DNA of 64,000 bases from contig NHZP01000004.1 in the NCBI GenBank assembly GCA_003313425.1, positions 1,984,001 through 2,048,000 on the forward strand, read 5' to 3'. The DNA comes from Pseudopyrenochaeta lycopersici. Its lineage: Eukaryota; Ascomycota; Dothideomycetes; Pleosporales; Pseudopyrenochaetaceae. This document shows positions 36,845-57,798 of this stretch, piece by piece. Position 1 is the first letter of the stretch. Each line of letters begins with the position of its first letter. Under the pieces are notes generated by a model. That model worked only from the letters and a program-made list of their open reading frames with translations. It was not told where the DNA came from and ran no database searches. The translations under genes were made by a program, and so were the position numbers.

Positions 36845-38788
36845 ATGGTTTCACAACTTGCATTAACGCTTCTTTCTCTCGTTTCTTGGACTACTGCGGC
36901 GCCTGCGCTACCTTTAGAAGGTCGTGCCTATCAATATATCGCTGCGCCTGCAAATAAAACCTTCGACTATGTGAGATGATCCTCCCTTTGCTCCATTCAA
37001 TAATCTCATTTAGACCAAGGTTATTGTTGGTGGTGGCCTCACCGGCCTCACTGTTGCAGCCCGTCTCGCTGAGAATCCGGCCATAACTGTAGCGGTTCTC
37101 GAGGCGGGAGACTTCTATAACAACATAAACGGAAATGCTTCCCGTGTCCCAGGCTATGGCGCTCAAGTCGGCGGTCCAGGTGTGGAATGGAGTATGCCCA
37201 CAACTCCACAGGCTGCGCTCAATAACCGTTCACCTCCATGCACTCAAGGAAAGACCATCGGCGGATCAACTGCTACCAATCTTATCACATATCACCGGAG
37301 CACCAAAGGCGCCCACGAGAAATGGGCGGCAACTGTAAGCGACGACAGCTTCAAGTGGGACTCATTCCTCCCGTGGATGCGCAAGGCAACCAATTTTGTG
37401 CCTGCGAATGCGCAAATCCGAGCAAAAAATGCAACAGTACCATCACCGAGTGTGGAAAGCTGGGCCAATGCGAAAGGGCCTGTCGGGATTACGTACCCGA
37501 ACTGGGCGAATCCTGTGTCTTCTTACGCCCAAGAAGGTTGGAAATCACTCGGATTGAACTCATTAAAAGACCTGACGAGTGGCTCTTTGATTGGAAATCA
37601 ATATTCTCCCATGGCAATTCACGCAAAAGACCAATCGAGAGCAACCGCTGAGAGTTTTATCGATTATTCGATTGCCAGTAGCCGCCAGAATCTCTTCATA
37701 TTTACAAAGAGTTTGGCGAGGAAGGTCAATTTCGACAGCCAAAAGAAAGCAACATCTGTCCTTGCTGACTCAAACGGCGTTTTCTTCCAACTGGAAGCGA
37801 AGAAAGAAGTTGTGCTAGCTGCAGGAGCATTACACACTCCCCAGCTCCTAATGGTGTCTGGGATCGGTCCCCAAGAAACCCTCTCCAAGCATCAGATTCC
37901 TGTTGTCAACGCGCTGCCTGGTGTTGGAAAGAATTGGCAAGATCATCCTAACTTCCTGATGGCTTTCGGTGCGAATGCTGTTACTGGAGCCATGCTTCTT
38001 GACCCGACATTTGCGGCAGCAGCAGCGAAAGAATACACCGAAAAACAAACTGGCATCCTTACACACAACATGGCCGACTACTACGCATGGGACAGGGTGC
38101 CGGATAGCCAGCTAAGCTCAACAGCGAAGAGTGACTTGAAGAGCGTACCAAAAGATTGGCCACATTACGAAGTCGTACTGGCAAATGTACCTCTCCCCTT
38201 TGGAACAAACTCTGCGCAAGGCATCGTTATGCTGCAGGCCGTAACTTCTCGCGGTATGTTAATACTGTTCATCAACTCTGGATATGTCTACTAACAAACG
38301 ATAGGAACCGTTTCTATCTCTTCCACGACCACATCTGACGCGCCAGTCCTGGACTCGCAGACTTTTGCAACGTCCACTGACCGTGAGCTTGCGGTGCTTG
38401 CATTCAAACGCGCGCGAGCCTTTTTCTCTACCCCATCCATGAAGAAAATTATCTCTGGGGAGCTCATGCCTGGATCGTCAGTCTCTTCTGACGAGCAAAT
38501 CCTTGACTGGCTGCGAAACAACATTGGGCCGGGCGCACACCCATGTTGCACAGCAACGATGGGGAAGCAGAGCGATGCGAATGCCGTCACTGATACGAAG
38601 GGGCGCGTATTTGGTGTCAAAGGCTTAAGGATTGTCGATGCGAGCGTGATGCCCTTCCTTACTCCAGGACATATTGTTGCTGTATTATGTAAGTGTTTTG
38701 ATACCGCTGAGTGCGAAGCAACTTGCTGATCATGAATATAGATGGACTTGCCGAGAAGATTGCGGATGACATGAAGAAGGGCAGATAA
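36845..38788 (+). CDS. Secreted GMC oxidoreductase with altered C-terminal box
   Basis: 596 residues in four exons: 36845-36970, 37020-38253, 38305-38688 and 38742-38788. MVSQLALTLLSLVSWTTAAP is a signal peptide. The FAD-binding motif GGGLTGLTVAARL is at about residue 45, LEAGD near 70, GKTIGGSTATNLITYHR is signature 1 and GALHTPQLLMVSGIG signature 2. The C-terminal box usually written HP-x-GTCKMG is here HPCCTATMG, and the last block is GHIVAVLYGLAEKIADDM, keeping the active-site His. It oxidises an alcohol or C-C bond in an unknown substrate. Position next to the exporter and P450 genes makes it a candidate tailoring oxidase, although a secreted enzyme would act after export or in the wall. 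Confidence 0.87.
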
Positions 38789-39379
38789 GGTTGGTGACTG
38801 CGGATTGTTTCCTAGTTAACGGGTTTTCATTTCTAGTTGGATAGTTTTAGAGCACCGGGTTTGGTGTTTTGTACCACAGTAAATACATATCAATTCAATC
38901 CTCTTTGTAATCATCAAATGATCTTCTTGAGGGGAATGCATAGCTTCCGAGTTCTGGGGCTTGACCACTGAGGGTCAATTGCCTGTCATCATCTGTTGCA
39001 ATGGATGTCGCCCCGTTGTTGTTCCAACTACAAGGATGCGCTCATGCGGTCCTTCAATCTGTACATCCTGAACCGGCGTCCGAGTGCAGTAAAATCGAAA
39101 CCAAGAAGCACTTTCTCGGTAAATATCCTGGAAACGGTTTATTCTGTTGGTTCACTGGATGGTATATTGACTGCCGGAACGTGATAACCGTGGTTCAAAA
39201 TCTTTGCAACTTCATAAACGCCCTACCATCCCGATACGTCTTCATCGAGCGAAGTGTGCAAAATGTCATAGATTGCAGGGAGATATCATGACCTGTAAGG
39301 ATGATAATATATACTGACTTTTTATTATTATTGGCCTTATATATGCTGGTATTCATTGATCATTAAACTCGGCTTCCGT
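38789..39379. other. Convergent intergenic stretch
   Basis: 591 bp between the 3' ends of the GMC oxidoreductase gene and the P450 gene on the other strand. A 96-codon frame from the ATG at 39001 has no signal peptide or motif and is not called. Confidence 0.5.
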
Positions 39380-40981
39380 CTAAGTGTGTTCTTTGACCAC
39401 TTTGATCCGAACGCCTCTCGAATCCGCAGCAAACCCCCCCGCAAAGCCATCCCATGTGATTTCCACATCCTTTGAAGTAGTTTGATAGAGTTCAAAGTCG
39501 AAGCGCCGGATAAGACATGCAATGGCGAGATGTAACTCTGCGCTTGCGAGGCTGAACATTGGTTAGCATTGGGTATTGTGTATTCTGTAATATTCCGTTT
39601 CACTCACTGTAAGCCAATACATGCCCGTGTTCCTTTAGAGAATGGAATCACGTATTTCTCCAAGCCTTGTGCGGCGCCGAACCAACGATCTGGGTCGAAT
39701 TTGTAGGGTTGTGGAAATAATTCAGGATCCAAGTGCATGAAGTGCGTACTCATCGAGACGGGCGTTCCGGCAGGGATGGAGTAGTCCCGAAAGTGGAGTA
39801 CTTCGCTGGGCGCGGTGCGGATCAGACGTGTGGTGATGACAGCTTGCACACGGTGAGCCTCGAGAATAGTCGCACGCAGATATGGTAGCTGCTCCAGCTT
39901 CTGCCAGCTAGGAGGGTTCTGAGGGTCTGGAATAGCCTTTCGAAGCTCGGACTCAAGTTTTGCCAATGCGTCTGGGCTGTTGAGCAGGTGGAAAGTGAGC
40001 ACCGCTAACGTTTGCGCAGTTGTCTCGCCACCTGCGCCAACTAGAATGAAGCCCTCATCCATAAGACGCTCAACGGTTTTCTCGTTTGGCGGCAAATTGC
40101 TGTCACGGAGTTCCTCGAAAATGGTTCTGTGCTTGTCCTTTTCGCTGGATTCACGCGCTAGTGTCGCTTCTACGATTGCTCTGACGTCCTGTTTAATTAG
40201 GACATGTTCGTTTCGCATGTATCAGGATTTATGTCCGTACCTTCTGTACCTTTAAGAAAAACGCGACTGGCTTGCTGACCATTGCAGCCACGCGATCTGG
40301 CAATCGCATCATGACATCCGCTACCCATGGAAGGTGACGATTCATGATGCTTGCTTCGATCATAGCGAGAATCGCATGCTTCCAATCGGGATCAAATCCA
40401 GGCTTATCCAGCAGCCCAAAAGAGTCTCCAAAAGCATAATGAGAGATGACATCTAGGGTTAAAGCCATGAATGCGGTTTGCATCTCTACCGGTGTTGCCG
40501 TGTCGATGTGTTCCCTGAGCGCTGTGCAGAGCCGATTCACTTTATCCTGAATGAGAGGCTCAATAGTTGCGATACTGCTTTTCGAGAAGTATGGATTGAG
40601 TGCGCTTCGCCTGAGGCGATGAAGATCATGCCCAATGGTGCCAAAAATGCTTTGCCCACCGCTCCGGCCCACGAACCATGCAGATTTGTCGCGCCTGCGA
40701 CCGCCTGCCGCGTAAAGCTCGTTGTACCAGTCGGGGTCGCGAACATGCAGTTCATATGGATTGATGCGCACAATAGGCCCATAGACCTTGTGCATCTCCT
40801 CAATTTTCTTATAGAACTGCCCATGCTTGACGGCGTCGTAGTAGAACTCATACCACATTGTCATGGCGGCGAGCCTGGGGCCAGGGAACTTGGCGAGAGG
40901 AGAGAAGCAGATTCGATATATCGCAAGACATGCCGAATAGAGCAGGAATGCTCCAACAAGGGGAAGCACGATTGGGATCAT
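39380..40981 (-). CDS. Cytochrome P450, trichodiene-oxygenase-like class
   Basis: 497 residues in three exons: 40981-40241, 40188-39608 and 39551-39380. The start is the ATG at 40981; the open frame reaches 41065 but only with GTG. The N-terminus is an ER anchor (IVLPLVGAFLLYSACLAIY) followed by the proline hinge FPGPRLAA. The I-helix reads AGGETTAQT, the K-helix ExxR is EAHR, and the heme loop is FSKGTRACIG with Cys437 as ligand. The N-terminal third (WYEFYYD, GPIVRINPYELHVRDP) resembles TRI4/CYP58-type enzymes that oxidise terpenoids, though the class is broad. It is transcribed divergently from the SDR gene, sharing a 552-bp promoter, so the two are probably co-regulated. Confidence 0.9.
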
Positions 40982-41533
40982 GATGGCGATGTGGCAATGA
41001 GCGAGAATGGCGCGCTGTTGCAGATAGCTATACCCAAGAATCCAAGGCTCCCCTCCATGTGCCACAAATCCTGCGACAGAAATCTGCTAGGCCGACGTTG
41101 AGATGAGTGCTACGGATTGTCCTCCGCTGTATTGCCCGCGCAGACTACACGAGTCGATCAGGCTATACGAGCTGGTCAGGCTGGATGAGCCGCTCAGATC
41201 AAACGAGGCGGACGATCGCTGCAGGCATAAAATAAGCTTCGGAGGCCGCTCTGCGCTAACCGCATTGGGTCCGCAATGAGGCTCAGGCGAAGCGCACCAA
41301 ACATCGTCCGCATTTCTTTTGAAGAGACAGTCGGAACAGTGCATTATTCAGCCGGCCGCTCTTTGTCCTTTTCAATTTCACCATACACCAAGAGAACTAT
41401 ATCTCCTCTACGCATTGCTCATTCCATCTTCCTACCATCCATATTCCACTTGCGCGTCCCTAGCCTCCTCACCATCCACATTCCACTTCAACCACCCCAC
41501 TTCCCACGAGCCATCCCACGTTCAATCGCCACA
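40982..41533. promoter_or_regulatory. Bidirectional promoter, P450 and SDR
   Basis: 552 bp separate the two divergent ATGs. A four-unit degenerate 18-bp repeat lies at 41146-41217, with a TATA-like CATAAAATA near 41226 on its SDR side. CA-rich and CT-rich sequence precedes the SDR start, typical of fungal 5' leaders. Confidence 0.5.
41146..41217. repeat. Degenerate 18-bp tandem repeat, four units
   Basis: Units are TACACGAGTCGATCAGGC, TATACGAGCTGGTCAGGC, TGGATGAGCCGCTCAGAT and CAAACGAGGCGGACGATC. Units 1 and 2 agree at 14 of 18 positions; all share ACGAG or ATGAG at position 4. It lies in the shared promoter and could be an array of activator sites. The reverse frame encodes a Ser-rich six-residue repeat but is closed off from the P450 frame by a stop, so I read it as non-coding. 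Confidence 0.6.
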
Positions 41534-42580
41534 ATGGGTTTCGCGCTCCAATTCCTCAAGTCTCAGCTTTTTACACGACTCCCATATCCAACCTCCGACT
41601 TCAGTGGCCAGACCATCATCATTACGGGTTCGAACACGGGCCTGGGTCTTGAGGCTGCGCGCCACATTGTTCGCCTCGGCGCCTCCAAAGTCATCCTTGC
41701 TGTCCGCACAGTCGCAAAAGGCGAAGCTGCAGCGCAACAAATCATTGCCTCTACCAATGCAAAGAAGAATGTGATTGAGGTCTGGCAACTCGACCTGTCT
41801 GACTATGAGAGCATCAAAGCGTTCGGAGCGCGTGTGCAGGCACTCGAACGCCTTGACGCCTTGATCCAGAATGCGGGTATTTTGACTCGGCACTTTGAAC
41901 TGGTGCAGGACAACGAGAGCCACATCACAATCAACGTCATTTCAGCGACCCTGGTTGGCCTCCTGGTGCTGCCAAAGCTGCAAGAGACCAGCCACAACTT
42001 CGGGGTCAGAACGCGGTTGGCTTTTGTTGGCTCCGACCTGCAGTACATTGCCAAGTACAAAGAAGGCGAGACATCTGGATCCATTTTGGAGGCACTAGCA
42101 AAGAAGGAGGGAGTCGACATGGGCGACCGTTACAATGTCTCCAAGTTGTTGCTCCTCTACACCGTCCGTGAACTTGCAGCACGAAGCCCGCTCTCCAAAG
42201 ACTCCAATGTTGTCATCAGCAAGCTCACACCGGGAGCCTGCCAGTCGGATCTTTTCCGTGACGACATGGGCTGGCTGGAAAGCACAATCCAGAGCATACT
42301 TGTCAAACTTATTGCCCGTACTACCGAGGTTGGCTCTCGCACTTTGGTCCATGCCGTGAAGCCCGATATCGAGGACAATGCGCATGGCGCCTTTTTGATG
42401 GATTGCAGAGTTGCACCGTAGGTACTCTCCCTGACACTAGGATCCAACAACTGACTTGTAAACAGAAACGGCTCCCGGGTTGATAGCGCCAAGGGTCAGA
42501 GCGAGCAGAGGCGGTGGATTGAGGAGTTGCTTCCCAAACTAGAGAGCATTTCGCCAGGCTGCACAAAGGTCCTAGTATGA
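41534..42580 (+). CDS. Short-chain dehydrogenase/reductase, retinol-dehydrogenase-like
   Basis: 332 residues in two exons, 41534-42417 and 42466-42580. The start is the ATG at 41534 in the context CACAATGGG; an in-frame ATG at 41276 would add an 86-residue Pro/Ser-rich extension with no match, and lies in the promoter. The Rossmann motif TGSNTGLG is at residues 31-38, IQNAG near 115 and the catalytic YNVSK at 200-204. The family uses NAD(P)H to interconvert alcohols and ketones on lipophilic substrates. Divergent transcription from a P450 gene suggests oxidation of a hydroxyl group introduced by that enzyme, or the reverse reduction; this is inference. Confidence 0.9.
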
Positions 42581-43529
42581 GTGCACAGACACATTGATAA
42601 TGGTTGACCTGTCAGTACGGTGCTGGGTTTCTTTCGGTGGCGTTCTACCTCGGGCTATGGCTCTCACGAGGCAACTGTGTTTGCTTTCCTGTACTTATCA
42701 CTCTGGTCTTCCTATCTTCCCAAGGCTTCTACGTGCATGGCTATCAGCGAGGGGACTGTTTTAATTTCTAGAATTCGTCACTATTCAAAATGATTCCTTA
42801 CCTATTGCTCCGTCCTTTTTGCTTTCGGCCTTGTGGTTGCACAGTATGATCAGAGTTGGCATCGTGATACAGTGACACAAAAATAAGGAAGCTTCCCCAT
42901 CGGCTTCTCGTTCGAGGGCAGCAATTGTTCGCGAATCTCTCATCCGGCGCTGCAACTGCATCTACATGCTACCGATCAGATGGCTAGTTCCCAAATGTGA
43001 GGCAATGTGTGTGGCAGAGGGTGCAGATTGCGACAAAGAGACGGGGGAGCGGGGCTTGAGAAACGGCGTCCTGGCTCGTGCGCCTGCCCTCTTGCTGGCG
43101 ATTTTCGTCTCAGTCACTGCGTCCATCCCGCATCTCAGGCTCTACCCTGCGGTTCCGGCAGTTGAGTATGGTCTGAGCGATTTGCGCTAAACTTATGCTT
43201 ATCTGCAGCGGAAGGCAAGCATGCTGTCCATTTTCGGTCCGCAGTGGGGGACCGATTACCTTGCATCTGACGTGCCTGAACCGAGCATGCGCGCCCCATG
43301 TCATGGAACGAGAGCTCTCCCACCAACGGTACTCCATCCACATCTGCTCCGAAAGACCCTGGATTCCGGGTCTACGGAGCCAATGGTTTTACCATAGCTG
43401 TGCTCATCCTACGAGAACAGACTAAGTGTTCTTCGACCCTCGCTTCATCCAGATTACCATCATTACTTCTGTTCCCTCATTCATCTGGTCCAAGGAATTG
43501 TCACAAGCAGCTGTCGGGCGAGCAAAATA
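42581..43529. other. Intergenic
   Basis: 949 bp between the SDR and second P450 genes. Overlapping short frames near 42966-43440 show no motif. It includes the promoter of the P450 gene. Confidence 0.5.
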
Positions 43530-45330
43530 ATGGCAACAAACATGTCCAACTCCCACTGGGAGATACCCTCCGGGTCCCATACTGTTGGGGACGCAACATT
43601 TTTATCCATATTTCTCCGGCCGAGCAGTGCTATAGTCTTTCTTGTCACGATAATTTTAATTGGGATTTCAAGCTGGAAGACCTTGGAGAAAGGAAAGAAG
43701 GAGAAGATTGGCCTCGGCGAAGTTATTGGAAACGTCGGTGACCATGACTTTCACAAGGCGCTCTATGATGGGTATTTCAAAGTAGGCCATGCATCTTCTC
43801 GCACCAAGTAATTTTCTAAATGGTGTAAAATAAAAACTAATGAGATATAGCACAAGGACACGCTTTTCACCATCCCCACTGCCCACCACGCCATGACTAT
43901 CGTGCCAGCTAAATTCCTTGACGAGATCAAAGCACTTCCAGAAAGCATACTATCCTTTCAAAAGCAAGTCACTGCACGTTTTCTTGGTAAATATACCGGT
44001 CTCGGCGTTAATGACACGCTTGTGCACTCTGTCAAAGTAGACTTGACAAAGAACATTCCTCGAATCATGGCTGAACTGCAAGACGAAGTAGGATATGCGG
44101 TCGGAGAGCATATTGGCGAGTGCGAAGACTGGACCGCGTACCCACTTTATTTCATGCTCACACATTTGGTGGCATTATTGAGTGGAAGGATATTTGTAGG
44201 GCATCCACTGAGCAGAGATCCGACCTGGCTCCATGCTACCGTCAGGTATACTATTGATGGATTCACCGGTAAATATCATTCACATCAATTTCAGGGCATG
44301 TGAAAATGCTAAAAATGGCATAGGTGCTGAGAAGCTCTGGAATTACCCTCGAATCCTGCATCCCATTATGCAGTACCTTATCCCCGAAGTCCGCATGGTG
44401 CATTCCTATCTCTCCAACGGTGCAAAAATGCTGGCTCCAATCATCAAATCTCGCCAAAATGCAACGACGGTCTCTGAGAAAGACAAGCCATCCGATATGA
44501 TTCAATGGATCATTGACAACTCAGATCCCAAAGACAAAGGCAACGTTGCATACATTACCAAAACCCAGATGCTTATATCTGTCGTTGCAATTCATACGAC
44601 GACTATGACAATGACTCAAGTGATTTTTGATTTGTTGGCACATCCTGAGTACATCGGCATCTTGAGGGACGAAATCCAATTGGTGAAGCCGACTGAGGAT
44701 GAACCATGGACTAAAGCAAAGATCGCGGGGTTGAAGAAAATGGATAGCTTCATGAAGGAGAGCCAAAGATTCAGGCCGCCAGGGTTGGGTATGCATACAT
44801 TCCCCGCTAGTGCACTATGAGAGTCGATTCTAATGACATCCAAAGTTACTATGAATCGCCAAGTCGAGCGAGAGCTCAAGCTCAGCAATGGCTTGACCTT
44901 ACCAAAAGGCGCGCACATTGGTATCGCAGCCGGAAGTAATGCTCTAGATCCTGAACTCTACCCTAACCCTACGGAATTCGACGGTCTGCGCTTCCTTAAG
45001 TTGCGAAATCTCCCTGGGAATGATAACAAATACCATGTAAGCCAATTTAGCCCTTAATACTACTGGTTCCTGGAATTCATAAACAACTAATACTGTCGAC
45101 AGTTTGTTACAACCGGTCCCGATCAACTACATTGGGGTGTTGGCACGCATGCCTGCCCAGGCCGCTTCTTCGCCGCGTATGAAATCAAGGTTCTTCTCGC
45201 AAAGATCTTGATGACCTACGATATCAAGCTTGAGGGCGATGTGAACAGTAGACCAGAAGATGTCGCAATCGATATCCGTGTCGTACCAAACCCCATGGCA
45301 AAGGTTCAATTCAAAAAGAGGAAGGCTTGA
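43530..45330 (+). CDS. Cytochrome P450, ent-kaurene-oxidase/indole-diterpene-oxidase-like class
   Basis: 517 residues in five exons: 43530-43781, 43851-44268, 44324-44788, 44846-45036 and 45103-45330. A membrane anchor (AIVFLVTIILIGISSW) lies at about residues 34-49. The I-helix reads AIHTTT, the K-helix ExxR is ESQR, and the heme loop is WGVGTHACPGRFFA with Cys460. The first position is Trp rather than the usual Phe. The CPGRFFA ending and AIHTTT are typical of fungal kaurene-oxidase-like P450s that work on diterpenoids and related isoprenoids. A second ATG (residue 5) could also be used. The class fits a terpenoid pathway with the squalene synthase 3.4 kb downstream. Confidence 0.88.
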
Positions 45331-46152
45331 GTACTTGCAATATGCGAGGGTGAGCTTACTGATTCTAATTTCTGTAGAAACTTGGACTCGGGGAAGCAGA
45401 GATGAATCTGTCTCTTCTCAAGCTTCAGGGATGCGTAGTAGTTTTATTTGGTTTCGAGCATTTGATGTTCCTGCGCCGGACAGTCGCAGACCTACGTATT
45501 TATGTATATACCGGATGCGCATTCATGGCAAATCAAAATTGGTACCAAGCTTCCATCAATAGTGTTCCACTAAAGAAATCTCCTAAATCAAGCAATATTA
45601 TATTGTGCCTGAAACCTACAATGACCTGTGCCAGTATGCCTTCTGCCTAGCAGTCGTCAAGACTAGCACCATGAAAGTTTTCTCAGAACAAGAATTCAGC
45701 GACTGCATTTACTCTTGCTTGAGTGGCTGCAAGGACTACTACCTGCTTATCGATAGATATGACTGAAAGTACCTGCATTATGCAAAGAATTGCCCGGATT
45801 GCGTATTACAACATTGAGTCGGCTCCATCGGATCGGACGTCCGCAGTGCAACCTTGCTTGATAGCAAGGCGGTCAAGCCGGTACAGCGGTATAGAACCCA
45901 ACCCCACAATGTCTTGTACTCAGTAATGTCTTTCCGCTTTCGATGCGCTTTCGATGGCCCCAACGGGCCTCAGTGGTCAGTTGGAGAGTTCGGTCGATTT
46001 GCGGACTGTCTTGTTGTCAGCATCCGCCTTGACAACGCTACTGAGGTGAGGAACGAGATATTTCAACATATATCGGAGTCGTAGTCAATATATAAAACAT
46101 CCCAATAAGGACGGCACTGGACTGAACAGTCTGAGATCACGTCGAAGCTTTC
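45331..46152. other. Intergenic, promoter of the third P450 gene
   Basis: 822 bp. A TATA box is at 46091-46097. Small open frames on both strands near 45720-46080 have no recognisable motif. Confidence 0.5.
46091..46097 (+). promoter_or_regulatory. TATA box of the third P450 gene
   Basis: TATAAAA, 56 nt upstream of the first ATG at 46153. Confidence 0.4.
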
Positions 46153-47886
46153 ATGATGATGTTCTATATACTTGCGGCGGTCGTAGCGCTAGGCTTTGTG
46201 AGGCACTTGTACAAACATCGCCGTGCTCCCCCGGGGACTAGGTACCCTCCTGGGCCTATGGGTAGGTTGAAACCTCTTCAATCTTTCTAGGAATGTTCCA
46301 CTCATAATCCTAGGTCTCCCTCTCATCGGACGCGTCTGGGACATACCTCGCCAACATAGCTACAAGCGTTTCAAAGCATGGTCAGACCGACATGGGCCAA
46401 TATTTAGTATCAATATCTTTGGCATCAACCATATCTGGCTCGCATCCGACAAGATTGCGAATGATCTCCTTGCTAAGCGAGCAACAAAACACTCTGATAG
46501 ACCTAGCATCAATCAGTTACTAGACAGCAAAACTGAGCCTGAGTATCTTCCTCTGCTTGGATATAATGGTATGCCCTTGCTACAGTCTCTTCTTAACATT
46601 ATTTCTGACCGCAGCATAGATATTTGGAAACGTCAACGCAGAATTGTGACCCAATTCATGACCAACTCATCAAGAACTAAATTTCACCAAGTTCCCTACC
46701 TTGAACTCGGTCAATTTCTTACTGAACTTATTGCAACACCAACAAACTACGAAACAATCATGGAGAACTACACTGGCCGCGTGATCTCCCGGCTTGCTTT
46801 CGGTGTCCCCGATCATTATGAAGACATTAAGATGTATTCACATGGCCTGCTCAAAGCCATTTCCCCAGCGGCGTACATTACGAACATCATTCCACAGTTG
46901 AAGTCTCTCCCTGCGTGGATCAGTCCCTGGAAATGGACAGAGAAAAGCAGACATTCCGCCGAGCGTGTCTTCTTCATGCGCATGCTAGAGAATGTAAAAG
47001 AGCGTATTTCGAATAAAACTGCAGCACCAAGCTATATGAAAGAGGTCATCGACAATCAATCCAAGACCAAGCTTCCAGATACCGAAGCGGCTTACATCGT
47101 TGGTATGATTGGGCTGGCGGGCGTTCTCACTACGTCGAGTTCAATGATGACCTATATCCTCGCGATGACTTTGTATCCGCATTGGCAGAAGAAGCTACAG
47201 GAGGAGGTAGATAGGGTTTGTGGTAACCGACTACCCGAGCTTTCGGATAGTCCGAATATGCCCATACTAAGGGCTGTGGTCATGGAGCTCATTCGGTGGA
47301 GACCAATCACGCCAAGTAGTAAGTGAAGGGCGCAGAAACGAAATTCCCAGAGACACTAACATATTTTCAAGGTATTCCACATGAGACGACCGAGGATGAC
47401 ATCTATGACGGCTACTTCATTCCCAAAGGGACTTACATTCACCCAAATCAGTGGGCCATCACCCGTGACACGTCCATGTACCCCGACCCCGAAGTCTTCA
47501 ACCCCGATCGCTGGCTGAATCCTGTATATCCAACCTACAAAGAGCCCATCACAAAGTTTCCTAGTATCCAAAACTTTACCACCTTTGGCTACGGCCGACG
47601 CCTCTGCATGGGCATGGATCTCGTGGAACAGGAATTCTTCGTCGCAATGGGCGCAATGGCTTGGGCGTGCCAGATTGAGAAAAAGAGAGACGAACTTGGT
47701 AGAGAAATTCATGTCCCAGAGCATGAGTATTCTACATATCTAATCAGTAGGCCCAAGACCTTTGCGTTTAATTTGATGCCGAGAAGCGAGAAGAAAGTCC
47801 GTCAGATTGAGGAGTTTCATGCGAGGGCACGGAGGGAGTTGGATCCGCCCTACGGAGAGACTTCCCCTGTAAAGCAAGCATTTTAG
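46153..47886 (+). CDS. Cytochrome P450, O-methylsterigmatocystin-oxidoreductase-like class
   Basis: 525 residues in four exons: 46153-46261, 46314-46568, 46620-47318 and 47372-47886. Three consecutive ATGs open the frame (MMMFYILAAVVALGFVRHLY), giving a short membrane anchor, then the hinge YPPGPMGLPLIG. The I-helix is AGVLTTSS, the K-helix ExxR is ELIR, and the heme loop is FGYGRRLCMG with Cys433. This class includes CYP64-like and many uncharacterised fungal tailoring P450s. Three P450s of different classes within 8.5 kb point to a multi-step oxidative pathway. The enzyme is followed, on the opposite strand, by squalene synthase. Confidence 0.9.
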
Positions 47887-48724
47887 TGGAATGCAATAGA
47901 CGTAAGTTACAGCGTCGATAGGGTTATTTACCCAGCATCAGTCTTTACACTCTAGAAAGACCCAAAGGCTCTCGTAGACTCTTGCATGAAAGTATGTCAG
48001 ATGAAGTGTTTTATCAATAGAAGTTCTTATTGGTTATCTCAAGTGAAGGTAATCAAACAGAGACAAATTGCGCCTAAGGATGTGTGACTTGCTGATAAGG
48101 CTGCCGAAAATCACAATCCCAGAAAGCCCTTTAGGGCTTGCCAGGTTACCGCTCTTGGAATGAAGGGTTCGATCGGTACACATAGTTACAGCTATGCAAC
48201 ATCAGATGGAAACTGCTGAAACGTAGCTGATTCGGCGCAAAAATTGTCCCACTTGTTCCCATACAATCTATTTGCCGGTATCCCCCCGGATTTTCAAGTC
48301 GGTTGCAATAGATTCTTCCTGTTTAACAACATGATCGGTAATTCCTAGATGATGGTAAAAAAACATATGGCTCGGCAGATATATTCGAAATTTGAAGCAG
48401 CTATAGAAGGACTCAATTCGTACGCGGTTCTTTTGCTCCAGACGCAGCTAGCGCTCCATGTTGCTTTGCTCGCCAGGTCGCAATGCGATTTCACGGGATA
48501 CTTCTGGAAGGAAATTCACTTGATCGCATATTTGGGTTATATATAATCAGTACTATTACAATTCCTTGCAGCCTTCGTACGCATTTGCAATGTTTTCAGT
48601 CTCGCTAAAGGATTTCGAAGTGGAAAGTTTACGCTGTTCCAACCCTGCAAATGCGAGAGCAGGGTGAATATTGAAGACCCAAATGGCGACAATCTATTGA
48701 CATTATCAGTGGTTTGATTAAAAG
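47887..48724. other. Convergent intergenic stretch
   Basis: 838 bp between the P450 and squalene synthase 3' ends. A perfect hairpin AAGCCCT-TT-AGGGCTT lies near 48124 to 48139. Nothing coding recognised. Confidence 0.5.
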
Positions 48725-50053
48725 TTAAGGAACTGTTCTTACTATCACAACAATGATCAGGCCAAAACTTGTAGAGATCTTCGTGACCATTACACTCTGC
48801 TGGTCCCTCTTTGCTCTTTCCCTCTCTCCCTGCTGTGCGTTTATAGTTGAATTTCTATCTGTACTAGCCGAAAGAGCATGCTGACTCTGAACGGAGAACA
48901 TGGAGTCAATGAAATTCTCAATCTTGCGGCAGGCCAGGCTGATCTCGCGAAAATGGGGATCAGTAGGGTTGTTCCTCTGGTATATTTTCTTTATATATCG
49001 CCTGAATACTTCGCATACAAGTTGAAAATTTGTTGACTTAATCATGAGCTGACAGGCTGCGCCTTTTGTGATTTTGACGTGACGGTCGAAGATTGCCGAA
49101 TTCTGGAACGAGAGCTCGAGTGTCGCTATAGCCATTGATTGCGGTATAGCAATGAATCTGAACACTGAATCATCCTTAATGGTTGAGATATACAATAAAC
49201 ATCCCTCGACTTTGCCCAGGGCGATGAGCACCATCTCACTGCTGCATTTCAATGCTTGTTGCTGGTTCTGTGGCAAAAACAGATCGCTGAATTCGTCCAC
49301 GTACTTAGACCAGAGCTCCTTGGGCCAGAAGCATCGCTTCTGACTGTGGTCTTCCCATAAATCGCGTATGATATTTGTTTGCTGCAAGAATTGACCCATT
49401 GATTCTATCGGCTGAGATTTCTGCAGGATGGCCGGGTTCGCAAGATCAGCCTTGACGAACAACAGTGTCAAACCCTCGCCAACGATTCCTGCAACCCAGT
49501 GGCAGTAACGCTCATACTCTGTGATGGATTGGATACCAAAAACGTTGCTGTGCGCATTTCGAGCGTAGTCTGCCATGCCATTACCCATCCGCTTCGTAAT
49601 GTCTTGAATAATAACCCTGTACTCGTGCTTCATTCCGCCGAACTCTCTAGATACGCAGCCAAAATTGACGAGCACTGCCCTATCTTTCTCATTAGGACCG
49701 TTGCCATTGTAATTCCAGCTCTTGTCATCGACGTGTATATGAAAATTGCGCAATAAGGGCTCCTTCTCCTCGATACTGATAGTCATGTCATCTTCAATGG
49801 TGTCGAGACTGCGTAGAATAAGGTAGAATATGCAAACCGGGACATGAAGCTCAGGGTGAAGTTCTTGAAGAACAGCTACAAACGAGCGCGATGTCAATTC
49901 GAGAAAGCGGTAACATTCCTTCAGGTCATCTGACTCCTTGCTCTTATCGCGCCTGTGGACAGGACTGTGCCATAGATTCCATTGAATGATGGCATACAAC
50001 TCTTTGAACTGGAAGAAGAAGTAGTAGTAGAAGAGTCTTCCGAAGTGTGACAT
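48725..50053 (-). CDS. Squalene synthase paralogue (ERG9-like)
   Basis: An intronless gene of 442 residues. The family condenses two farnesyl diphosphates head-to-head to presqualene diphosphate and reduces it with NADPH to squalene, on the ER. The start is the ATG at 50053, where the protein aligns with the usual N-terminus (IIQWNLWHSPVH). The first Asp-rich motif is DTIEDDM at 84-90; Tyr180 and Tyr183 sit in EYERYCHWVAGIVGEG. The second Asp-rich motif is D231-L-W-E-D235 within QQTNIIRDLWED, where the family normally has K-T-N-I-I-R-D-Y-L-E-D. FWPKELW and IPQSMAIATLE follow as expected. The C-terminal hydrophobic run (GLIIVVIV) is shorter than a normal membrane anchor. With three P450s, an SDR and two RTA1-like genes nearby, this is probably a pathway or resistance copy, not the housekeeping gene. 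Confidence 0.93.
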   Translation of the reverse strand: MSHFGRLFYYYFFFQFKELYAIIQWNLWHSPVHRRDKSKESDDLKECYRFLELTSRSFVAVLQELHPELHVPVCIFYLILRSLDTIEDDMTISIEEKEPLLRNFHIHVDDKSWNYNGNGPNEKDRAVLVNFGCVSREFGGMKHEYRVIIQDITKRMGNGMADYARNAHSNVFGIQSITEYERYCHWVAGIVGEGLTLLFVKADLANPAILQKSQPIESMGQFLQQTNIIRDLWEDHSQKRCFWPKELWSKYVDEFSDLFLPQNQQQALKCSSEMVLIALGKVEGCLLYISTIKDDSVFRFIAIPQSMAIATLELSFQNSAIFDRHVKITKGAACQLMIKSTNFQLVCEVFRRYIKKIYQRNNPTDPHFREISLACRKIENFIDSMFSVQSQHALSASTDRNSTINAQQGERERAKRDQQSVMVTKISTSFGLIIVVIVRTVP

Positions 50054-53044
50054 TTTGGGCCAATGCGATGACAGTGTGAAATGCGGGTAAGCGCAGGCGA
50101 TGGCAGCGGGTCTGAAGAAATTTCTGTATTGTTGTTGCAACTACTGCGGCTTCGAAATTTCGCCTATTAGAAGCTATTATCATTTGTAGGAGATCGTCTA
50201 TTTCGTCGGGAAACTGTACTGCGGCTATCTTATGTTGGGGCGCAGCAGCAAACGGGGGTGGGATTTGCCGACGGTGTCGGAATATAAACAAACCCGCATA
50301 TGTTCAAATTTGCTCTCAAGGGAGAGCCTAGTTCTTCAAGACATTGCCTCCTTTATTCCTAGTACCAATAGAAGCAACTATAATAAGATAATTTTGACAC
50401 AGGCACAAGCTCCTACTACCCGAGAGTTCAGATGAGAAGAGGCCGGGCTAGAGGGCGGTGGCCTCGACCAGCCATGCGGTGGAAAAACATGTACAACTTA
50501 AAACTCTTGACACTATTATAAAAACCGTGACTGCTCCCTGGCTAGTGCAGAAAAGTAGAATGTTAAGACGCGACTTTTCAAGCCCGGAAGAATCAATTTG
50601 GTATCGCAAAGTTAGAGCGTTGAAAATTGCAGCACCCCACACGTAAGTGGCCACACAATATCATCGCCCATTACAGTAGAGACCTTAATAGGAAACTATC
50701 TTTCTACAAAGCGTAAAAATTAAAGCTCTAGTAGTCTAAGCTCGCAATGTCGGACAAGTGAAGCGCACGATAACAAATCTCTTGTGTATTGGAGCAAAGG
50801 TCCCGAAAGCGTAGGGTTGTGTTGGTATACCTGTTCAACGCAGTGCCTCTAGCTCACATAGTAAATTCGCATCCAGTGCTCTTGAGATATCCGGTGCTTC
50901 TGTCGTAGAATCGTATTCTCGCTGCGCTGGGAGCTTGGCGCTGGGGCTGTGCGGTACGCAAGCGAGAACGAGTACGAAGGGTCCAAAGATGTACGATGGG
51001 TCAAACGTGCAAAGTCGCGTTCTGTCCCGTGTACTTCTGACAACTCAGTCCCAATTTAATCTTACAAATCCGGGAGAGCCGGACTGATATGGATACACTA
51101 TGCGCGTCTCATCCTCCATTCCTTTGTCTTCACAAATGCCCAGTGCCATGGAGGCAGAAGCGAATATCAAGAAACGAGAGCAAAAAGTTACGGTCACTGT
51201 CGCTAAAAGAAGTCGAACGTATGGTAGCTACAAGTACACATTGAGCCTCGATCTGAGTCAGGTAGCGTGACGGAACCATTCCTCGTAGTCGATGTAGAGC
51301 TCATAGCGCCATCCGTGTTCAGAGAGGAAAAAGTTGCATGATAAAGCTTGACAAAAAGGGTACGACATTAGTCTTCATTTCTTAAATATGGTGACTCACC
51401 AAACCAGATAGGTCGAAATTCTGGAGCTATAACAAAATTAACTTCGAGCCAGCCTTCGAAAATTGTGCAACCGTCTTCTAAGTAGCGAGGATTAGCCAGG
51501 CCAGCCATTAAAAATAACCTCGGAATGGCGACCCTTCATTGCACGATGTTGTCAAATGCCTCGACCTGCTACATTATTCAAACAAATCTAATAGTACTTA
51601 CGAGGAAATTTGAGGAATTTGGCATCCAGATGCATCAAATGCTGCTCAAGAGAAGGACCTCATTGATTCCGTAAGGCGTATCGCCAATTGAAACCGCCAA
51701 TCTATCTCAACCGTTGTGCACTTGCGATAATACTGCTCCAATCTAACTAACCATTGAAGCCAAAATTGCATTCTTGGAGTTGCTAATAAACTGGCTATTC
51801 TCACGGCAATCGCTGATGGCGTCCTCTGAGAAACAAGAATCGCCCGCGCTATCACCGACTGGTAGGAATATAGTAGCACTGAACTCCCCCTCATTCTCAC
51901 AACCTCATTCGTTTTATAAGTCATTCATGCCCAAGATAATAACAGGATCTCATAAAATGCATATAATTGTTGGAAAACATGAGCCATTCCGACCGAACGA
52001 CGATGGGGGAACGGATGATAATCAAACTTCAGCGGCCTCATAATATCCGATTAGAATGGTCCCGTGCAAGATAACTATTTCGAGTCAGGAATTTATATTT
52101 CTTCTATTTTGTCGGAAGTAGCTCCAGGCTTGGCTCTGATATCATCAAGTGAAAACCTCAGTCTCCTCTACCGAGTAAACTACGAACGACTGCTGGTGGG
52201 TGACTTGGCAGAGTTGATGAGAATATGATTGTACTTCTAATAAGGCCCAAAGTAATCTCATTATCGAGCCTGTTCGCCTTGATTCTACTTCATCCTCACT
52301 GTACTGAGCTAAGAAATGTTGTAAGGGTGCAAGGATGCTATGGGACTTATACCTCGATATTGGTAGTATATCAAGAATGCAGGAGTTGGTACTAATCCAT
52401 TGAATTACATATAATGTTCCACCAATTCCTAAGGTCATGAAATCTTGAAACAGGCATCGCCTCTAAACCTTTGTGCAACAGGATGGTAGAGCAAACCAAA
52501 AAGAGGTGCAATTTACTCCTAGGCTTCCTTGGTGCCCCAATAACAAGTTTTTAAAGATAGTGTTTAAAAAAACCCTGTATTAGAATCCTATGCGTTAGAC
52601 GACGGAAATTTGCAGAAATCACAATGAGAAGACTTCAAGTCATCCCCCTATCTACTGGTTGTCTCTGGGACCGCATCAACAGAAACAGAAAATTGCCAGT
52701 TTTGATTTTAATCGTAAGGTATTTTGATGTATTTTAGGGGTTAAGATCCTGTGGCTGTGCTTGCTTGGCTTTTGCGTGTCGTATACCGTACCGCGTTCCA
52801 TGTGGGTCCGTATATGTATTCGCAACCTCCCCGGCTACTAAGCAAAGATCCTTGTAGGATTCCGTGATGTGTTTAAAAACCGAATCCATTGCTCATATGA
52901 AGCAATCATATGCCACGCTCCTTTCATTTTCTCTCTTCAGATATTTACGATCACTACCATCCTCAATATATATGTTTCTGTTTCTTTCAGGCTCTTTACA
53001 CTCGATCAGATCTTAATTTCTCACCCGTTTGGCAGGTCTCTACA
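50054..53044. other. Intergenic, 3 kb, AT-rich
   Basis: Promoters of the squalene synthase gene (left, minus strand) and of the RTA1-like gene (right). CCGACGGTGTCGG at 50268-50280 is the one regulatory candidate. Between 50.4 and 52.9 kb there are only short frames on both strands without motifs; I specifically looked for pieces of a cyclase or prenyltransferase and saw none. Confidence 0.55.
50268..50280. promoter_or_regulatory. CCGAC-N3-GTCGG palindrome upstream of squalene synthase
   Basis: CCGACGGTGTCGG has perfect five-base inverted arms and lies 215 nt upstream of the squalene synthase ATG. The CCGAC half-site is the one repeated in the exporter promoter. Candidate Zn2Cys6 target, by form only. 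Confidence 0.35.
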
Positions 53045-53934
53045 ATGGCAGGCCCGAACGGACTATACAAATATGAGCCCAACCAAATAGGTGCTGTTGT
53101 TGCCATGTTTCTTTTCGGCCTTAGCAGCGCATACCATTTCTTTCAAATGATACGATCACGGGCATGGTTTTATAGCTCTTTTGTTGTCGGAGCAATCAGT
53201 ATGTCATGACATGTCCCTAAATATCTGCCAACAGCTAACACATATCAGTGATGACAATCGGCTATGTCTTCCGCTATCTATCTGCGCGATCACCAAACGA
53301 ACTCATGCTCTACATCGGCCAATCCTTGGGCATTATGCTGCCGCCATCGCTCTATGCTGCTACAATCTACATGATATATGGCCGCCTCGTCGTCTTCGTC
53401 AACGCGACTGAAGCTTCTGTCATTCGTCCCACATGGGTTACCAAGATTTTCGTTTGCGGCGATCTTCTTGCCTTCTTCATGCAAATGGGCGGTGGTGGTA
53501 TGATGGCAAGTGAGGGCATGGCGGACCTAGGGCAGAAGCTCGTACTCTTCGGTCTTGGAGTGCAACTCATATTCTTCGGGTTTTTCCTCTTCATTGCGCT
53601 GACGTTTTGGAAGCGCATGCGCCAATCACCAAGACGATATTCTATCCCGCAGTACGGAAATCATGGGTGGGAGACATTGTTGAAGATGCAGTTATGCGCC
53701 GCAGTCATCATTATCGCTCGCTGTATTTTCCGTGTTATCGAATTTTCGCAAGGCTCCGGCGGGTACTTGTTCCATCATGAAATTTACATGTACGCATTTG
53801 ACGCGGTACCCATGTTCTTCGTGCAGGCGATGATGCACTTTGTGTATGCTGCAGAGGTGTTCGGCGTGGGGCGATCGATGCGACTGCGAAAGACCGAAAG
53901 TATAATCAACCTGTACGAGAGAAGCGAGGCCTAG
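53045..53934 (+). CDS. RTA1-like seven-TM protein, first copy
   Basis: 279 residues in two exons, 53045-53198 and 53249-53934. The open frame extends upstream of the ATG at 53045, but the ATG context (ACAATGGCA) and family length favour it. It shows the RTA1 pattern: a short N-terminus YKYEPNQ, seven hydrophobic segments, YVFRYLSA after segment two, YMIYGRLV, PTWVTKIFVCGDLLAFFMQ in the middle, and RCIFRVIEFSQGSGGYLFHHE before the last segments. RTA1 and RSB1 of yeast give resistance to 7-aminocholesterol and sphingoid bases, and the family is described as lipid-translocating. Close to a squalene synthase it may protect membranes from, or move, a sterol-like product; that role is inferred. Confidence 0.9.
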
Positions 53935-56592
53935 CAGCGAGGCCATTGAAACACTTTCAAGGTATTTCCCAGCCGTCATGGTTCAGTGAAATGGATTAAT
54001 AGATGAGGAGGTAAAAGAAAGAGAGATGCCCACTTCGACTAGGAATGGAGAATAGCTACATGTGAACTACTTCCAATTGTACCAGAGAGTAGTATGCATG
54101 ACGAAGCAGTCATAACATACAAAAAGGGTAATACAAATACTACAAGGCGAAGGTCTTTTTTGGCCGGGGCATACTTTTGTGACCAGCTTGTTTCTTTTAG
54201 AATTCGCATGAATTATCAGCCCCTTAGCCAGAATATAGTCGCTTATCACATAAGTTTCTTCAAATGTACATGAGAGCTTGCCAAATACGCATAATAGAGA
54301 TTAATTGAAGGCTCTAGAGCATCCTTCTCTTCGGAGGTACTGGCCGGTATAGCATACGTTCTAAAACTTTGCGTATTTAAAATCCCTATTCAGGTGACAT
54401 GAGCACTACACCTACGTTATCACTGCTCTGAGTCTATTTTCAGGCATCATAATTCACTACAAAGCCTTCGTTGATAACGCTTGAAGAAAAAAAGAATAAA
54501 ATACTATGATGAAGTCAGGTACTCTACAACCCAGGAGGGCGTAGATATATTTCAGCTTGAAATTTTTGAGATTGTGAGTTTTAAATACTTATCTGAATAG
54601 AAAAAAGAATTATGCTTGGCTATCGATGATGAGTGGAGTGATGGGTAGATCTATTTTGAGGTCGACTTGTTATTTGGGGCTGAAAAGCCGAGTGGGAAGC
54701 TTCGACATGAGAACAAAGTAAATTTTGAATTTGAATAATATGCAAAAAAACATGACAGGGGAGAGAATAGCCAGTTTTGGAAGCGATGCAACACATCGCA
54801 TCCTGATGTTTACCTCAGACGCAGATCGACTGGCAAGGACCGAACGATCGGCTAGTACCGAGGGGCGACACACTACGACGGAGGCGTCATGAGCCACATT
54901 AAGCTATCGGGCCCCACAAGCACGCTATCTGCCTCAGGAATTATCTTTGCGTATTCTTTACAGCATTCGAAGCAACAACAGTCAGCCTGCGTAGGTCTTT
55001 CCAAGATTATTCTCCATGACACTCTTTAATTTGAAGCATCTTTATGGCTCGTCGCAAGTACGGAAAGCATCTCAACATTGTACCTCCCTTAAGCCTCTCT
55101 CTCTCTGCAAACTGCTTTCCTGCTTGTTGCGCATTACTCTGGTTTCAATAAAAATTGTGGCCCATACTCAGGGTGGCATAATGGAGTTGAATATGCTGTC
55201 CTAGCGGTACTTTCATGAAGCAACCCTGGGCTGTTTCCGGGGCTGCGGTATTAGTTCCAATCTTGATCCCACTTCAGGTTCATGCAATGATCCACAACCA
55301 AAGCAATTGGATTGCCATTCAACGGTAGCATTTGCCTATTGTGACAAAATGAGACTACTATGTCTCGCCTTTGGAGTTCATACATCATCATGAATGTGGA
55401 GGCATTGAGTGGTAGAGGGATGGAGCAAATGAAATATAACACCAGAGATGTAGTATTCGTAGAAGATCAGTCTTGTACGTCAAAGCCGAATATCCTTAAT
55501 TGAGATTTCGAACCAATATTCACAAATATTCTGATGCCTAGGATGGACGGTAATGTCATGTCATTGCTTTGCGTAAAGGAACACTAATATGTCGTAAGCA
55601 ACCCGGTGCTATGAGGATTGGTCAGAGAAAGAGGAAGAGGGAGATAGAGAAAGAGAAAGAGGGAGATAGAGAAAGAGAAAGAGGGAGATAGAGAAAGAGA
55701 AAGAGGGAGATAGAGAGAGAGATAGAGAAAGAGAAAGAGAAAGAGAGAGATAGAGATAGAGAAAGAGAAAGAGAGAGATAGAGAAAGAGAAAGAGAAAGA
55801 GAAAGAGAGAGATAGAGATAGAGAAAGAGAAAGAGGGAGATAGAGAAAGAGAAAGAGAAAGAGAGAGATAGAGATAGAGAGTTAAATAATGATCGCACGA
55901 TAGACAAAGATTAATTTTAGTATATATTGGCAATACATGTCGAGGCTAAACATGTTGCTTGAAAAAAGTAAGAGTAAATGAGCAGACAGAGGAGCTTAAT
56001 ATTTCGTGCAACCTGAGAATGACTTGCCGCATCTAGATACTTGCTTATTATTCTAGAAATATATTTCGCTTGAGAGAAGTCATATCTTGGTCTTGGAACA
56101 GCGCATCATACGCAGTTCGATCAGTTGGCGATGATGAAACTCCATGGAAACTAACCAGAGCTCTTCGCATGGTTCCCATTCTTCGTAGCAATTTTTCTTT
56201 GGTGCCTATTGGCTTTCAATGCTTGATTAATTACATGCATGGATCTGCTGTCGAGCTACACGCACTGACATTGCGTCTTCCCCTGTTCCCTGACAACATG
56301 TCCTTGCGGCTCCGCCGCGATCGAATGTTGCAAGATTTGGGGCGTTCATGCTAATTCGACTGCCAAGTCCAGTGACTCGCTGGTTTCTGGTTACGGCCCG
56401 ACTCACAGTCTCGCTTCTCTTCTCTTTGCCTTTACGACCTCTTGATCACAACAGCACCTGTAGACGCTTCAGGCTAGGGAGGGTACGACTGAACTCCTAC
56501 CATTCAACTGAAATTTATAGTTTTTTTTAATCTCGTTCGCAACCTCTTGTGATCAAATCTCCGCCACTCTGGTTTGACCTACCCGCACTCAG
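53935..56592. other. Intergenic with purine-rich minisatellite
   Basis: 2.7 kb, AT-rich at the left. It contains the purine tract at 55624-55881. Open frames inside the tract (Ser/Leu/Phe repeats on the minus strand) are low-complexity artefacts. The last 300 bp are the promoter of the Zn2Cys6 regulator. Confidence 0.55.
55624..55881. repeat. Purine-rich minisatellite, 22-bp period
   Basis: About 258 bp composed of A and G with scattered T. The first half repeats GGGAGATAGAGAAAGAGAAA plus GA (22 bp) three or more times; the rest mixes GAGAGATA and GAGAAA units. The plus strand is almost free of C. Homopurine tracts of this kind can form triplex or slipped structures and vary in length between isolates. 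Confidence 0.95.
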
Positions 56593-57798
56593 ATGCCCCG
56601 CAGGCGATCGCACAAGAAGTCTCGATACGGATGCGATGAATGCCGAAGGAGACGCGTGAAATGCGACGAGAGACAACCGCGTTGTTTAGGCTGCATACAC
56701 CGAGGGACTGCTTGCCATTATTCGCGGCAGACTGTGCTCCACATTCAGGGCCACGTCCTCGAGGCGGAAAGCTCGCCCTCCTTCAGCGGAACCCAACCTG
56801 AGGCTTCTCCTGTCCACAACGTCATAACAACATGCCATTCCTGCAGCGTTCAGAGCTCCACGGTTGATGAAGTAGCATGGCTGTCAATCAGGCACACCGA
56901 GCTGGAGCTGATGCACCAGTGGTGCACGCGAACCTGTTATAGCTTTTCTTCTCACCTTGCGGAATGGTTCAGAGATCACGTAGGAAAGGAAGCTCTCCGC
57001 TATGATTTCTTGATGAAGGCGCTTCTGGCATCTACGTCGCTCCATATTGCGAGCGAAACGAAGGACGCGAAAGCTGCACGTCGTTACGTAAGCGCCGCGC
57101 TTCAGTACCAGAATCAGGCTGTCTCTGGGTTGCGTGGAATGCTTCACGACATCACTCCGTCAACTTGCATCGCGATCTTTGCATCTTCAGCAATGATTAT
57201 AATTTGTGCGATTGTCTCGCCACTTCTTCCCGCAGATTCAAGCAGTGAGGTCAAATCAACTGCGGAGGCAATCTTGCCTGTCATTGACCTTATAAAAGGC
57301 ATTAGTTCAATTGTCGACGTTAGTCGCCAATGGCTTCTTCAAGGACGTCTAGGTGAAATATTGCGCAGCGTCATTCCGAGGAAACCATCAGCTATCGAAA
57401 TTTCCTCGCCTGCGCAGGAGTTGCGACAACTGAACGATGCGTTCCTCAGCAACAACCGCTACGCGCAAGACCAACGAGCAAATGGAAGTAAAAAGCATGA
57501 AATCTTCGAAGAAGCAATCCAAAAACTTGAAGAAGGGTTCGAATGTGGGACATCTATGCTTTCATGGTTCTTGAAAATTGACCCAGAGTTTGTGAGCGAA
57601 TTGCGAAAGGATGAGTCAATGGCGGTGGCTATATTCATGCATTGGGGTGTGCTTTTGGACCAACTGGATGATATGTGGTGGGCAAAGTATTCTGGAAAAA
57701 GACTTGTGCGAGAACTGTCTACTAAGCTGGACGACCAAGGGGAGCAGTGGGGCTATCTTACCATGTGGTGTCGAGAGCAAGTAGGGCTGTGTGGATGA
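56593..57798 (+). CDS. Zn2Cys6 transcription factor, sterol-uptake-regulator (UPC2/ECM22)-like
   Basis: A single exon of 401 residues. The N-terminus is HKKSRYGCDECRRRRVKCDE, the form seen in UPC2/ECM22-like regulators: a basic HKKSR lead, then C-x2-C-x6-C-x6-C-x2-C-x6-C at residues 14-41, ending CHYS. A linker to about residue 95 is followed by the pattern LELMHQWCTRTCYSF and DFLMKALLASTSLHIAS typical of this group, whose C-terminal domain in yeast senses ergosterol. Many fungal members carry this annotation without proof. Its location between two RTA1-like genes and near a squalene synthase gives the sterol link some weight. Confidence 0.87.
   Translation: MPRRRSHKKSRYGCDECRRRRVKCDERQPRCLGCIHRGTACHYSRQTVLHIQGHVLEAESSPSFSGTQPEASPVHNVITTCHSCSVQSSTVDEVAWLSIRHTELELMHQWCTRTCYSFSSHLAEWFRDHVGKEALRYDFLMKALLASTSLHIASETKDAKAARRYVSAALQYQNQAVSGLRGMLHDITPSTCIAIFASSAMIIICAIVSPLLPADSSSEVKSTAEAILPVIDLIKGISSIVDVSRQWLLQGRLGEILRSVIPRKPSAIEISSPAQELRQLNDAFLSNNRYAQDQRANGSKKHEIFEEAIQKLEEGFECGTSMLSWFLKIDPEFVSELRKDESMAVAIFMHWGVLLDQLDDMWWAKYSGKRLVRELSTKLDDQGEQWGYLTMWCREQVGLCG

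What the first reader, a model, noticed from the sequence alone, without database searches (positions are those of the whole stretch)
36845..53934. Candidate gene cluster built around a squalene synthase with no other terpene core enzyme
Within 17 kb lie a GMC oxidoreductase, three P450s of three different classes, an SDR, a squalene synthase paralogue and an RTA1-like protein, flanked on the left by an exporter and two regulators. The sequence shows these genes directly. Squalene synthase belongs to primary metabolism and is seldom grouped with tailoring oxidases. The inference is a pathway to an oxidised linear or cyclised squalene-type product, possibly novel. No cyclase, PKS or NRPS is visible, so the core may be the squalene synthase itself.
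Basis: partly seen in the sequence, partly recalled or inferred. Interest (0 to 1): 0.8.

Follow-up and report, generated by a model that had tools for sequence, protein, structure and literature searches.

The report
Spare squalene synthase beside oxidase genes
A fungus carries, next to a group of oxidising-enzyme genes, a second squalene synthase that is not a copy of its own but is kin to one thought to protect another fungus from the squalene-synthase poison it makes, so it is more likely a protective spare than the builder of a new compound.

Summary
The genes are there: a GMC oxidoreductase, three intact P450s, an SDR, an intact second squalene synthase (SQS2, 48725-50053, minus strand, 442 aa) and an RTA1-like gene. 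The genome has an ordinary ERG9 770 kb away; no PKS or NRPS domain was found on the 2.19-Mb contig. SQS2 is not a duplicate of ERG9 (62% identical; AU test rejects the pairing). It falls in a 23-row clade (100/99) with MfR6, the squalene synthase of the squalestatin cluster, and proteins labelled Blastomyces silverae and Lineolata, nested in Mycosphaerellales/Capnodiales ERG9. SQS2 keeps the catalytic residues but shares V55, next to the inhibitor-binding flap, with 21 of 21 readable clade rows (2 of 110 ordinary rows). Its neighbour P450c is 92% identical to one in a Pyrenochaeta genome for which no SQS2-type protein was listed, so linkage looks unconserved for the one oxidase tested. Best reading: a horizontally acquired, probably inhibitor-tolerant squalene synthase, not the core of a squalene-derived pathway. 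Only two citrate synthase loci were found, neither near a ketosynthase, so what it tolerates is open. Tolerance is inferred, not tested.

The parts
48725..50053 (-). SQS2: second squalene synthase, 442 aa, no intron, MfR6-type clade
   Evidence: SQS_PSY 133 bits; 497 bits to A. fumigatus SQS 7wgh; start and length; trees
46153..47886 (+). P450c, convergent neighbour of SQS2
   Evidence: gene model; Pfam; 92% to Pyrenochaeta sp. MPI-SDFR-AT-0127
43530..45330 (+). P450b (heme motif WGVGTHACPGRFFA; likeness to fungal terpenoid P450s is recalled)
   Evidence: gene model; Pfam; PDB relatives weak
41534..42580 (+). SDR (retinol-dehydrogenase-like, name recalled); ends placed by eye
   Evidence: adh_short, sequence
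39380..40981 (-). P450a (trichodiene-oxygenase-like N-terminus, recalled)
   Evidence: gene model; Pfam
36845..38788 (+). GMC oxidoreductase, closest solved structure patulin synthase
   Evidence: (8bxl, 432 bits)
52901..53934 (+). RTA1-like membrane protein (two exons, start approximate)
   Evidence: RTA1 181 bits; ORFs
34107..35701 (+). MFS exporter, pieces of an interrupted gene
   Evidence: MFS_1
30108..32908 (+). Zn2Cys6 regulator, paralogue of the next
   Evidence: Zn_clus; C-terminal parts 28% identical
26145..28808 (+). Zn2Cys6 regulator
56578..57798 (+). Zn2Cys6 regulator right of SQS2

Best explanation
SQS2 is a catalytically competent squalene synthase of the MfR6 lineage, gained horizontally by this Pleosporales-like fungus, not by duplication of its ERG9. 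It most likely keeps squalene and ergosterol synthesis going when the housekeeping enzyme is blocked by a squalene synthase inhibitor: same reaction (two farnesyl diphosphates to squalene), altered surroundings of the inhibitor-binding flap. Shown: intact gene, catalytic residues, clade, non-kinship with ERG9. Inferred: transfer, enzyme activity, tolerance, and whether the inhibitor is its own (made by the adjacent oxidases or elsewhere) or a competitor's.
For: Clade of 23 with MfR6 at 100/99 in a rooted 61-row tree (57 of the 133 SQS proteins listed were put in); still 100/99 with only five short-branched clade rows. AU test rejects SQS2 with own ERG9 (p 1.6e-8) and with the Pleosporales ERG9 group (p 0.0002) (groups named after the tree was seen). 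MfR6 is so named by UniProt and listed as a known resistant target (PMC10320164, passages). SQS2 keeps both DxxED motifs, Y171, R228, F286 and F288 (human numbers). V at position 55 in 21 of 21 clade rows with a residue there and in SQS2, against 2 of 110 ordinary rows; Ile58 replaced in 11 of 21 and in SQS2 (Leu), 0 of 110 ordinary rows. Residues 51-54 are the flap that binds zaragozic acid, and Ile58 contacts another bound inhibitor's tail, with similar contacts described for zaragozic acid (PMC4106277, passages). Changes of SQS2 alone near the cavity: Y174W and N287R (invariant in 110 ordinary and 22 clade rows) and I289.
Against: No inhibitor assay exists. Inhibitor-contact columns as a set are not enriched for change: of 136 columns at least 99% conserved in ordinary rows, 15 have 5 or more departures among 22 clade rows, and of the contacts named in PMC4106277 only position 58 is one. 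Apart from MfR6, known from the literature, the genomic setting of no clade member could be read. No squalestatin-like cluster found: citrate synthase matches at three loci, one of them ATP-citrate lyase by its sequence, none within 90 kb of a listed ketosynthase. SQS2 has a long branch (0.7-1.3) and whether it lies inside or beside the rest of the clade is unresolved (p 0.125).
Confidence: 0.58

Rival explanations
1. Flux or backup isozyme: SQS2 is a foreign, ordinary squalene synthase that adds squalene capacity and has nothing to do with inhibitors or with the oxidases beside it.
For: Catalytic residues kept; P450c shows no sign of linkage to SQS2-type proteins; extra squalene synthase shifts terpene profiles in A. 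nidulans (PMC10881027, sections 6 and 10).
Against: Shared change after the flap and kinship with MfR6; 13 clade rows break 8-29 of 189 conserved columns, whereas ordinary groups left out in turn break 0-12 of 170-195.
Confidence: 0.22
2. Core enzyme: SQS2 supplies squalene, or a changed head-to-head product, that GMC, SDR and the P450s oxidise to a linear or cyclised product.
For: Gene content; no other core gene seen in the ORFs of the window or 20 kb to its right; highly oxygenated squalene derivatives (concentricols) exist in a fungus whose genome gave no extra squalene synthase and no explanation (PMC8403587, passages).
Against: MfR6 clade; P450c relatives in genomes with no SQS2-type protein listed; 0 of 120 listed P450c relatives share a longest-contig length with any of 21 clade rows.
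Confidence: 0.14
3. Bystander on the way out: a transferred gene under relaxed constraint with no present role.
For: Longest branch in the clade; breaks 28 of 188 conserved columns (one of the 28 is an artefact of residues placed before the start codon).
Against: 442 intact codons, catalytic residues kept and a hydrophobic C-terminus aligned with that of the clade.
Confidence: 0.06

Closest known systems
MfR6, squalene synthase of the squalestatin S1 cluster, Phoma sp. MF5453 (P0250)
   Same: Same clade at 100/99, V55, changed residue 58, catalytic residues kept
   Different: 59% identical over 86%; MfR6 sits in a PKS and citrate synthase cluster (PMC8403587, passages), SQS2 has neither on its contig (PKS) or nearby (citrate synthase)
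Fungal ERG9 (own ERG9, A. fumigatus 7wgh)
   Same: Domain, both DxxED motifs, similar length
   Different: 62% identity to own ERG9; own ERG9 has at least two introns by eye, SQS2 none; pairing rejected by AU test
Squalene synthase clusters of lichen fungi (PMC11457338)
   Same: Squalene synthases in cluster-like settings; 75% of the lichen fungi studied there have two copies
   Different: One of the two conserved clusters has phytoene desaturase, RPE65 and opsin genes; no P450s were found in them
PdFAC1 squalene synthase of Pseudogymnoascus destructans (PMC10881027)
   Same: A squalene synthase noticed during cluster mining
   Different: Gives 10-fold more squalene in A. nidulans; no tolerance or oxidase cluster described in the parts read

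Membership tests
Eukaryotic squalene synthase | SQS_PSY domain and both aspartate-rich motifs | tested here: met
Eukaryotic squalene synthase | Makes squalene from farnesyl diphosphate with NADPH | not testable with these tools
   needs assay
MfR6-type squalene synthase clade | Groups with MfR6 to the exclusion of ordinary ERG9 | tested here: met
   one search repeats the placement without MfR6
MfR6-type squalene synthase clade | V55 after the flap | tested here: met
   21 of 21 rows with a residue and SQS2, 2 of 110 ordinary
Self-resistance target gene | Second copy beside a core biosynthetic gene of an inhibitor | tested here: not met
   No ketosynthase, condensation, terpene synthase or prenyl synthase match on C4; a core of an unlisted kind is not excluded
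Self-resistance target gene | Less sensitive than the housekeeping enzyme | not testable with these tools
   needs inhibitor assay
Squalestatin/alkyl citrate cluster | PKS or FAS with a dedicated citrate synthase | tested here: not met
   no ketosynthase on C4; no citrate synthase match on C4 and none within 90 kb of a listed ketosynthase
Squalene-based biosynthetic cluster | Conserved linkage of SQS2 with its oxidases | tested here: inconclusive
   Not seen for P450c, from capped lists; GMC, SDR, P450a and P450b not tested

The most novel reading that the evidence does not exclude
The locus is a PKS-free cluster whose three P450s, GMC oxidoreductase and SDR oxidise a linear prenyl or squalene chain into a new squalene synthase inhibitor, with SQS2 as its self-resistance copy: a target-guided lead to an inhibitor class unlike the squalestatins.
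Probability: 0.12. Interest if true: 0.8.

Novelty: new variant of a known kind. Interest (0 to 1): 0.5.

Why it matters
It turns a vague terpene-cluster call into a testable one: the second squalene synthase belongs to the lineage of a known self-resistance gene, and that lineage, placed inside Mycosphaerellales/Capnodiales, turns up under scattered labels (Phoma MF5453, Lineolata, Blastomyces silverae, this fungus, and many proteins with no organism named). If its members are inhibitor-tolerant, the clade is a ready marker for finding fungi that make, or live with, squalene synthase inhibitors.

Tried and rejected
Rejected: recent duplication, or retrocopy, of own ERG9 (AU test). Rejected: V289 as a clade mark, because 100 of 110 ordinary rows have V there; I had first taken it for one. 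Rejected: a local squalestatin-type cluster; the weak citrate synthase match on C7 reads as ATP-citrate lyase (sequence, name recalled); the other two citrate synthase loci (C11, C16) I take as housekeeping, unchecked. No sign of a repeat between SQS2 and RTA1: that 2.9 kb matches only itself in the genome (the search skips very common words). A scan of viral contigs for the clade found no relative. A paper search for Blastomyces silverae with squalene synthase found 0 papers. Searching squalene synthase, squalestatin and horizontal gene transfer together gave 6 papers, of which I read passages of two (PMC10320164, PMC8557879); those passages do not describe this lineage; the other four were not opened. 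PMC12616698 (resistance-gene mining) holds no 'squalene' in its main text. PMC11109268, PMC7839719 and PMC11923402 were searched for passages and gave background only. Contexts of the clade's metagenome contigs were not fetched: no metagenome scans are allowed, none tried. No structure prediction was run. Supplementary files were not looked at.

Full report
Setting. The window is C4:1984001-2048000 of a 62.7-Mb, 188-contig genome. Its ERG9 is 84% identical to that of Lojkania enalia and P450c is 92% identical to one of Pyrenochaeta sp. MPI-SDFR-AT-0127, so I take the fungus as Pleosporales-like (orders of named genera are recalled throughout).

Genes. Splice-corrected models, joined by eye on GT-AG borders, give four whole proteins: GMC, P450a, P450b and P450c, confirmed by Pfam. 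SQS2 is a single exon at 48725-50053 on the minus strand, matching A. fumigatus squalene synthase at 497 bits. Order: two Zn2Cys6 regulators, an MFS exporter, GMC, P450a(-), SDR, P450b, P450c, SQS2(-), RTA1, a Zn2Cys6 regulator, RTA1. ORFs of 140 aa or more in 20 kb to the right (a fungal rhodopsin-like protein, and a serine-rich protein) and 10 kb to the left show no core biosynthetic gene; apart from that one Pfam scan these flanks were read by eye. A P450 match lies 24.6 kb right of the window.

Genome survey (matches are exons, not genes). PF00494: 4 loci, ERG9 770 kb from SQS2. Squalene cyclase PF13243: 1, on C2. Squalene epoxidase: 1 strong, on C23, and 2 weak, one on C4 about 500 kb left of the window. 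Ketosynthase 75, condensation 47, prenyl synthase 7, terpene synthase 5 matches, none on C4; UbiA 5, one on C4 about 560 kb left of the window. Citrate synthase: 5 matches at three loci, none on C4 and none within 90 kb of a listed ketosynthase; the weakest reads as ATP-citrate lyase.

Descent of SQS2. It is 62% identical to own ERG9 over 356 residues. A quick tree of 121 rows (119 of the 120 proteins listed, one dropped for length, plus the two own proteins) and a careful tree of 46 rows put it with 13 proteins that have no organism named. A profile search with that group brought in MfR6 of the squalestatin cluster, a Blastomyces silverae protein and a Lineolata protein. The rooted 61-row tree gives a 23-row clade at 100/99 (SQS2 and 22 others), inside a 50-row Mycosphaerellales/Capnodiales group (100/99) that excludes own ERG9. 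AU tests reject SQS2 with own ERG9 (p 1.6e-8) and with Pleosporales ERG9 (p 0.0002), and leave open whether SQS2 is inside or beside the other clade rows (p 0.125); these groups were named after seeing the tree, and SQS2's branch is long, which the tool warns about. The placement holds with only five short-branched clade rows, and MfR6 and the Blastomyces protein stay in the clade when SQS2 is left out. The scatter of named hosts is best read as horizontal transfer; the Blastomyces record rests on one label and could be contamination.

What sets the clade apart. In 189 columns at least 97% conserved among 106 ordinary rows, the 13 first-found clade rows break 8-29 and SQS2 28 (one of SQS2's is an artefact of residues before its start codon), against 0-12 of 170-195 columns for six ordinary groups left out in turn. 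Position 55 (human), just after the flap 51-54, is V in 21 of 21 clade rows with a residue there and in SQS2, against 2 of 110 ordinary rows; Ile58 is replaced in 11 of 21 and in SQS2, in 0 of 110; Y44 occurs in 18 of 21 and in SQS2, against 1 of 110 (22 clade and 110 ordinary rows, one of the 133 dropped for length). SQS2 keeps the metal-binding and catalytic positions listed there; a few clade rows depart singly (one S286; the Lineolata model is broken at the flap). Per PMC4106277 (passages) the flap binds the zaragozic acid core and Ile58 lines the donor farnesyl tail pocket used by inhibitor tails. Against this, contact residues as a set are not enriched for change, so tolerance is inferred mainly from kinship with MfR6.

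Linkage. The best 120 of 568 P450c relatives are listed; the first are Pyrenochaeta 92%, then Lophiotrema 73%, Lojkania 72% and Massariosphaeria 75%. None of these genomes is named with an SQS2-type protein in the 120 listed rows (of 3100) or (of 3214), where an orthologue as close as P450c would head the list; Lojkania appears only with its ordinary ERG9. No longest-contig length is shared between the 120 P450c relatives and 21 of the 22 other clade rows (MfR6 has none); only the longest contig per protein cluster is given. Many rows carry no name and an unannotated gene would be missed.

Literature. MfR6 is listed as a known resistant target (PMC10320164, passages). PMC9860836 (passages) calls a protein 58% identical to MfR6 the backbone gene of a squalestatin cluster; identity at that level does not by itself separate MfR6-type from ordinary enzymes, as SQS2's values here show. 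Alkyl citrate inhibitors need a citrate synthase (PMC13178491, PMC8403587, passages). In lichen fungi 75% of those studied have two squalene synthases, in cluster-like settings without P450s, and the same paper says such clusters of other fungi do contain P450s (PMC11457338, abstract, passages and section 24). A squalene synthase from Pseudogymnoascus raises squalene 10-fold in A. nidulans (PMC10881027, sections 6 and 10).

Verdict. I put 0.58 on an inhibitor-tolerant squalene synthase, 0.22 on backup, 0.14 on core enzyme and 0.06 on decay. Of the first, the bold part, that the neighbouring oxidases make the inhibitor, has about 0.12.

Noticed in passing
G000 contigs C79, C84, C109, C123, C129, C137, C147, C171: Ketosynthase hits of near-identical score (202-208 bits), four of them in frames of 1041 aa, mostly on small contigs: an amplified or repeat-borne PKS, or assembly duplicates.
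   Followed up: no
G000 contigs C41, C56, C64, C104: RTA1-like fragments with frames of 159 aa and 1 to 8 in-frame stops, mostly TAG, looking like repeat-induced point mutation of a copied gene.
   Followed up: no
window 26145-32908: Two neighbouring Zn2Cys6 regulator genes are paralogues (28% identity in the C-terminal part).
   Followed up: partly
window 55624-55881: Purine-rich (AGAGAA) tandem repeat of 258 bases between the RTA1 gene and the right-hand regulator.
   Followed up: no
window 10540-21121: A second oxidative group: GMC oxidoreductase, FAD monooxygenase and a class-V aminotransferase-like protein.
   Followed up: no
G000 C63:11456 and C63:36298; C63:77441 and C70:10365: P450 pairs with identical scores, suggesting recent segmental duplication or split haplotypes.
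   Followed up: no
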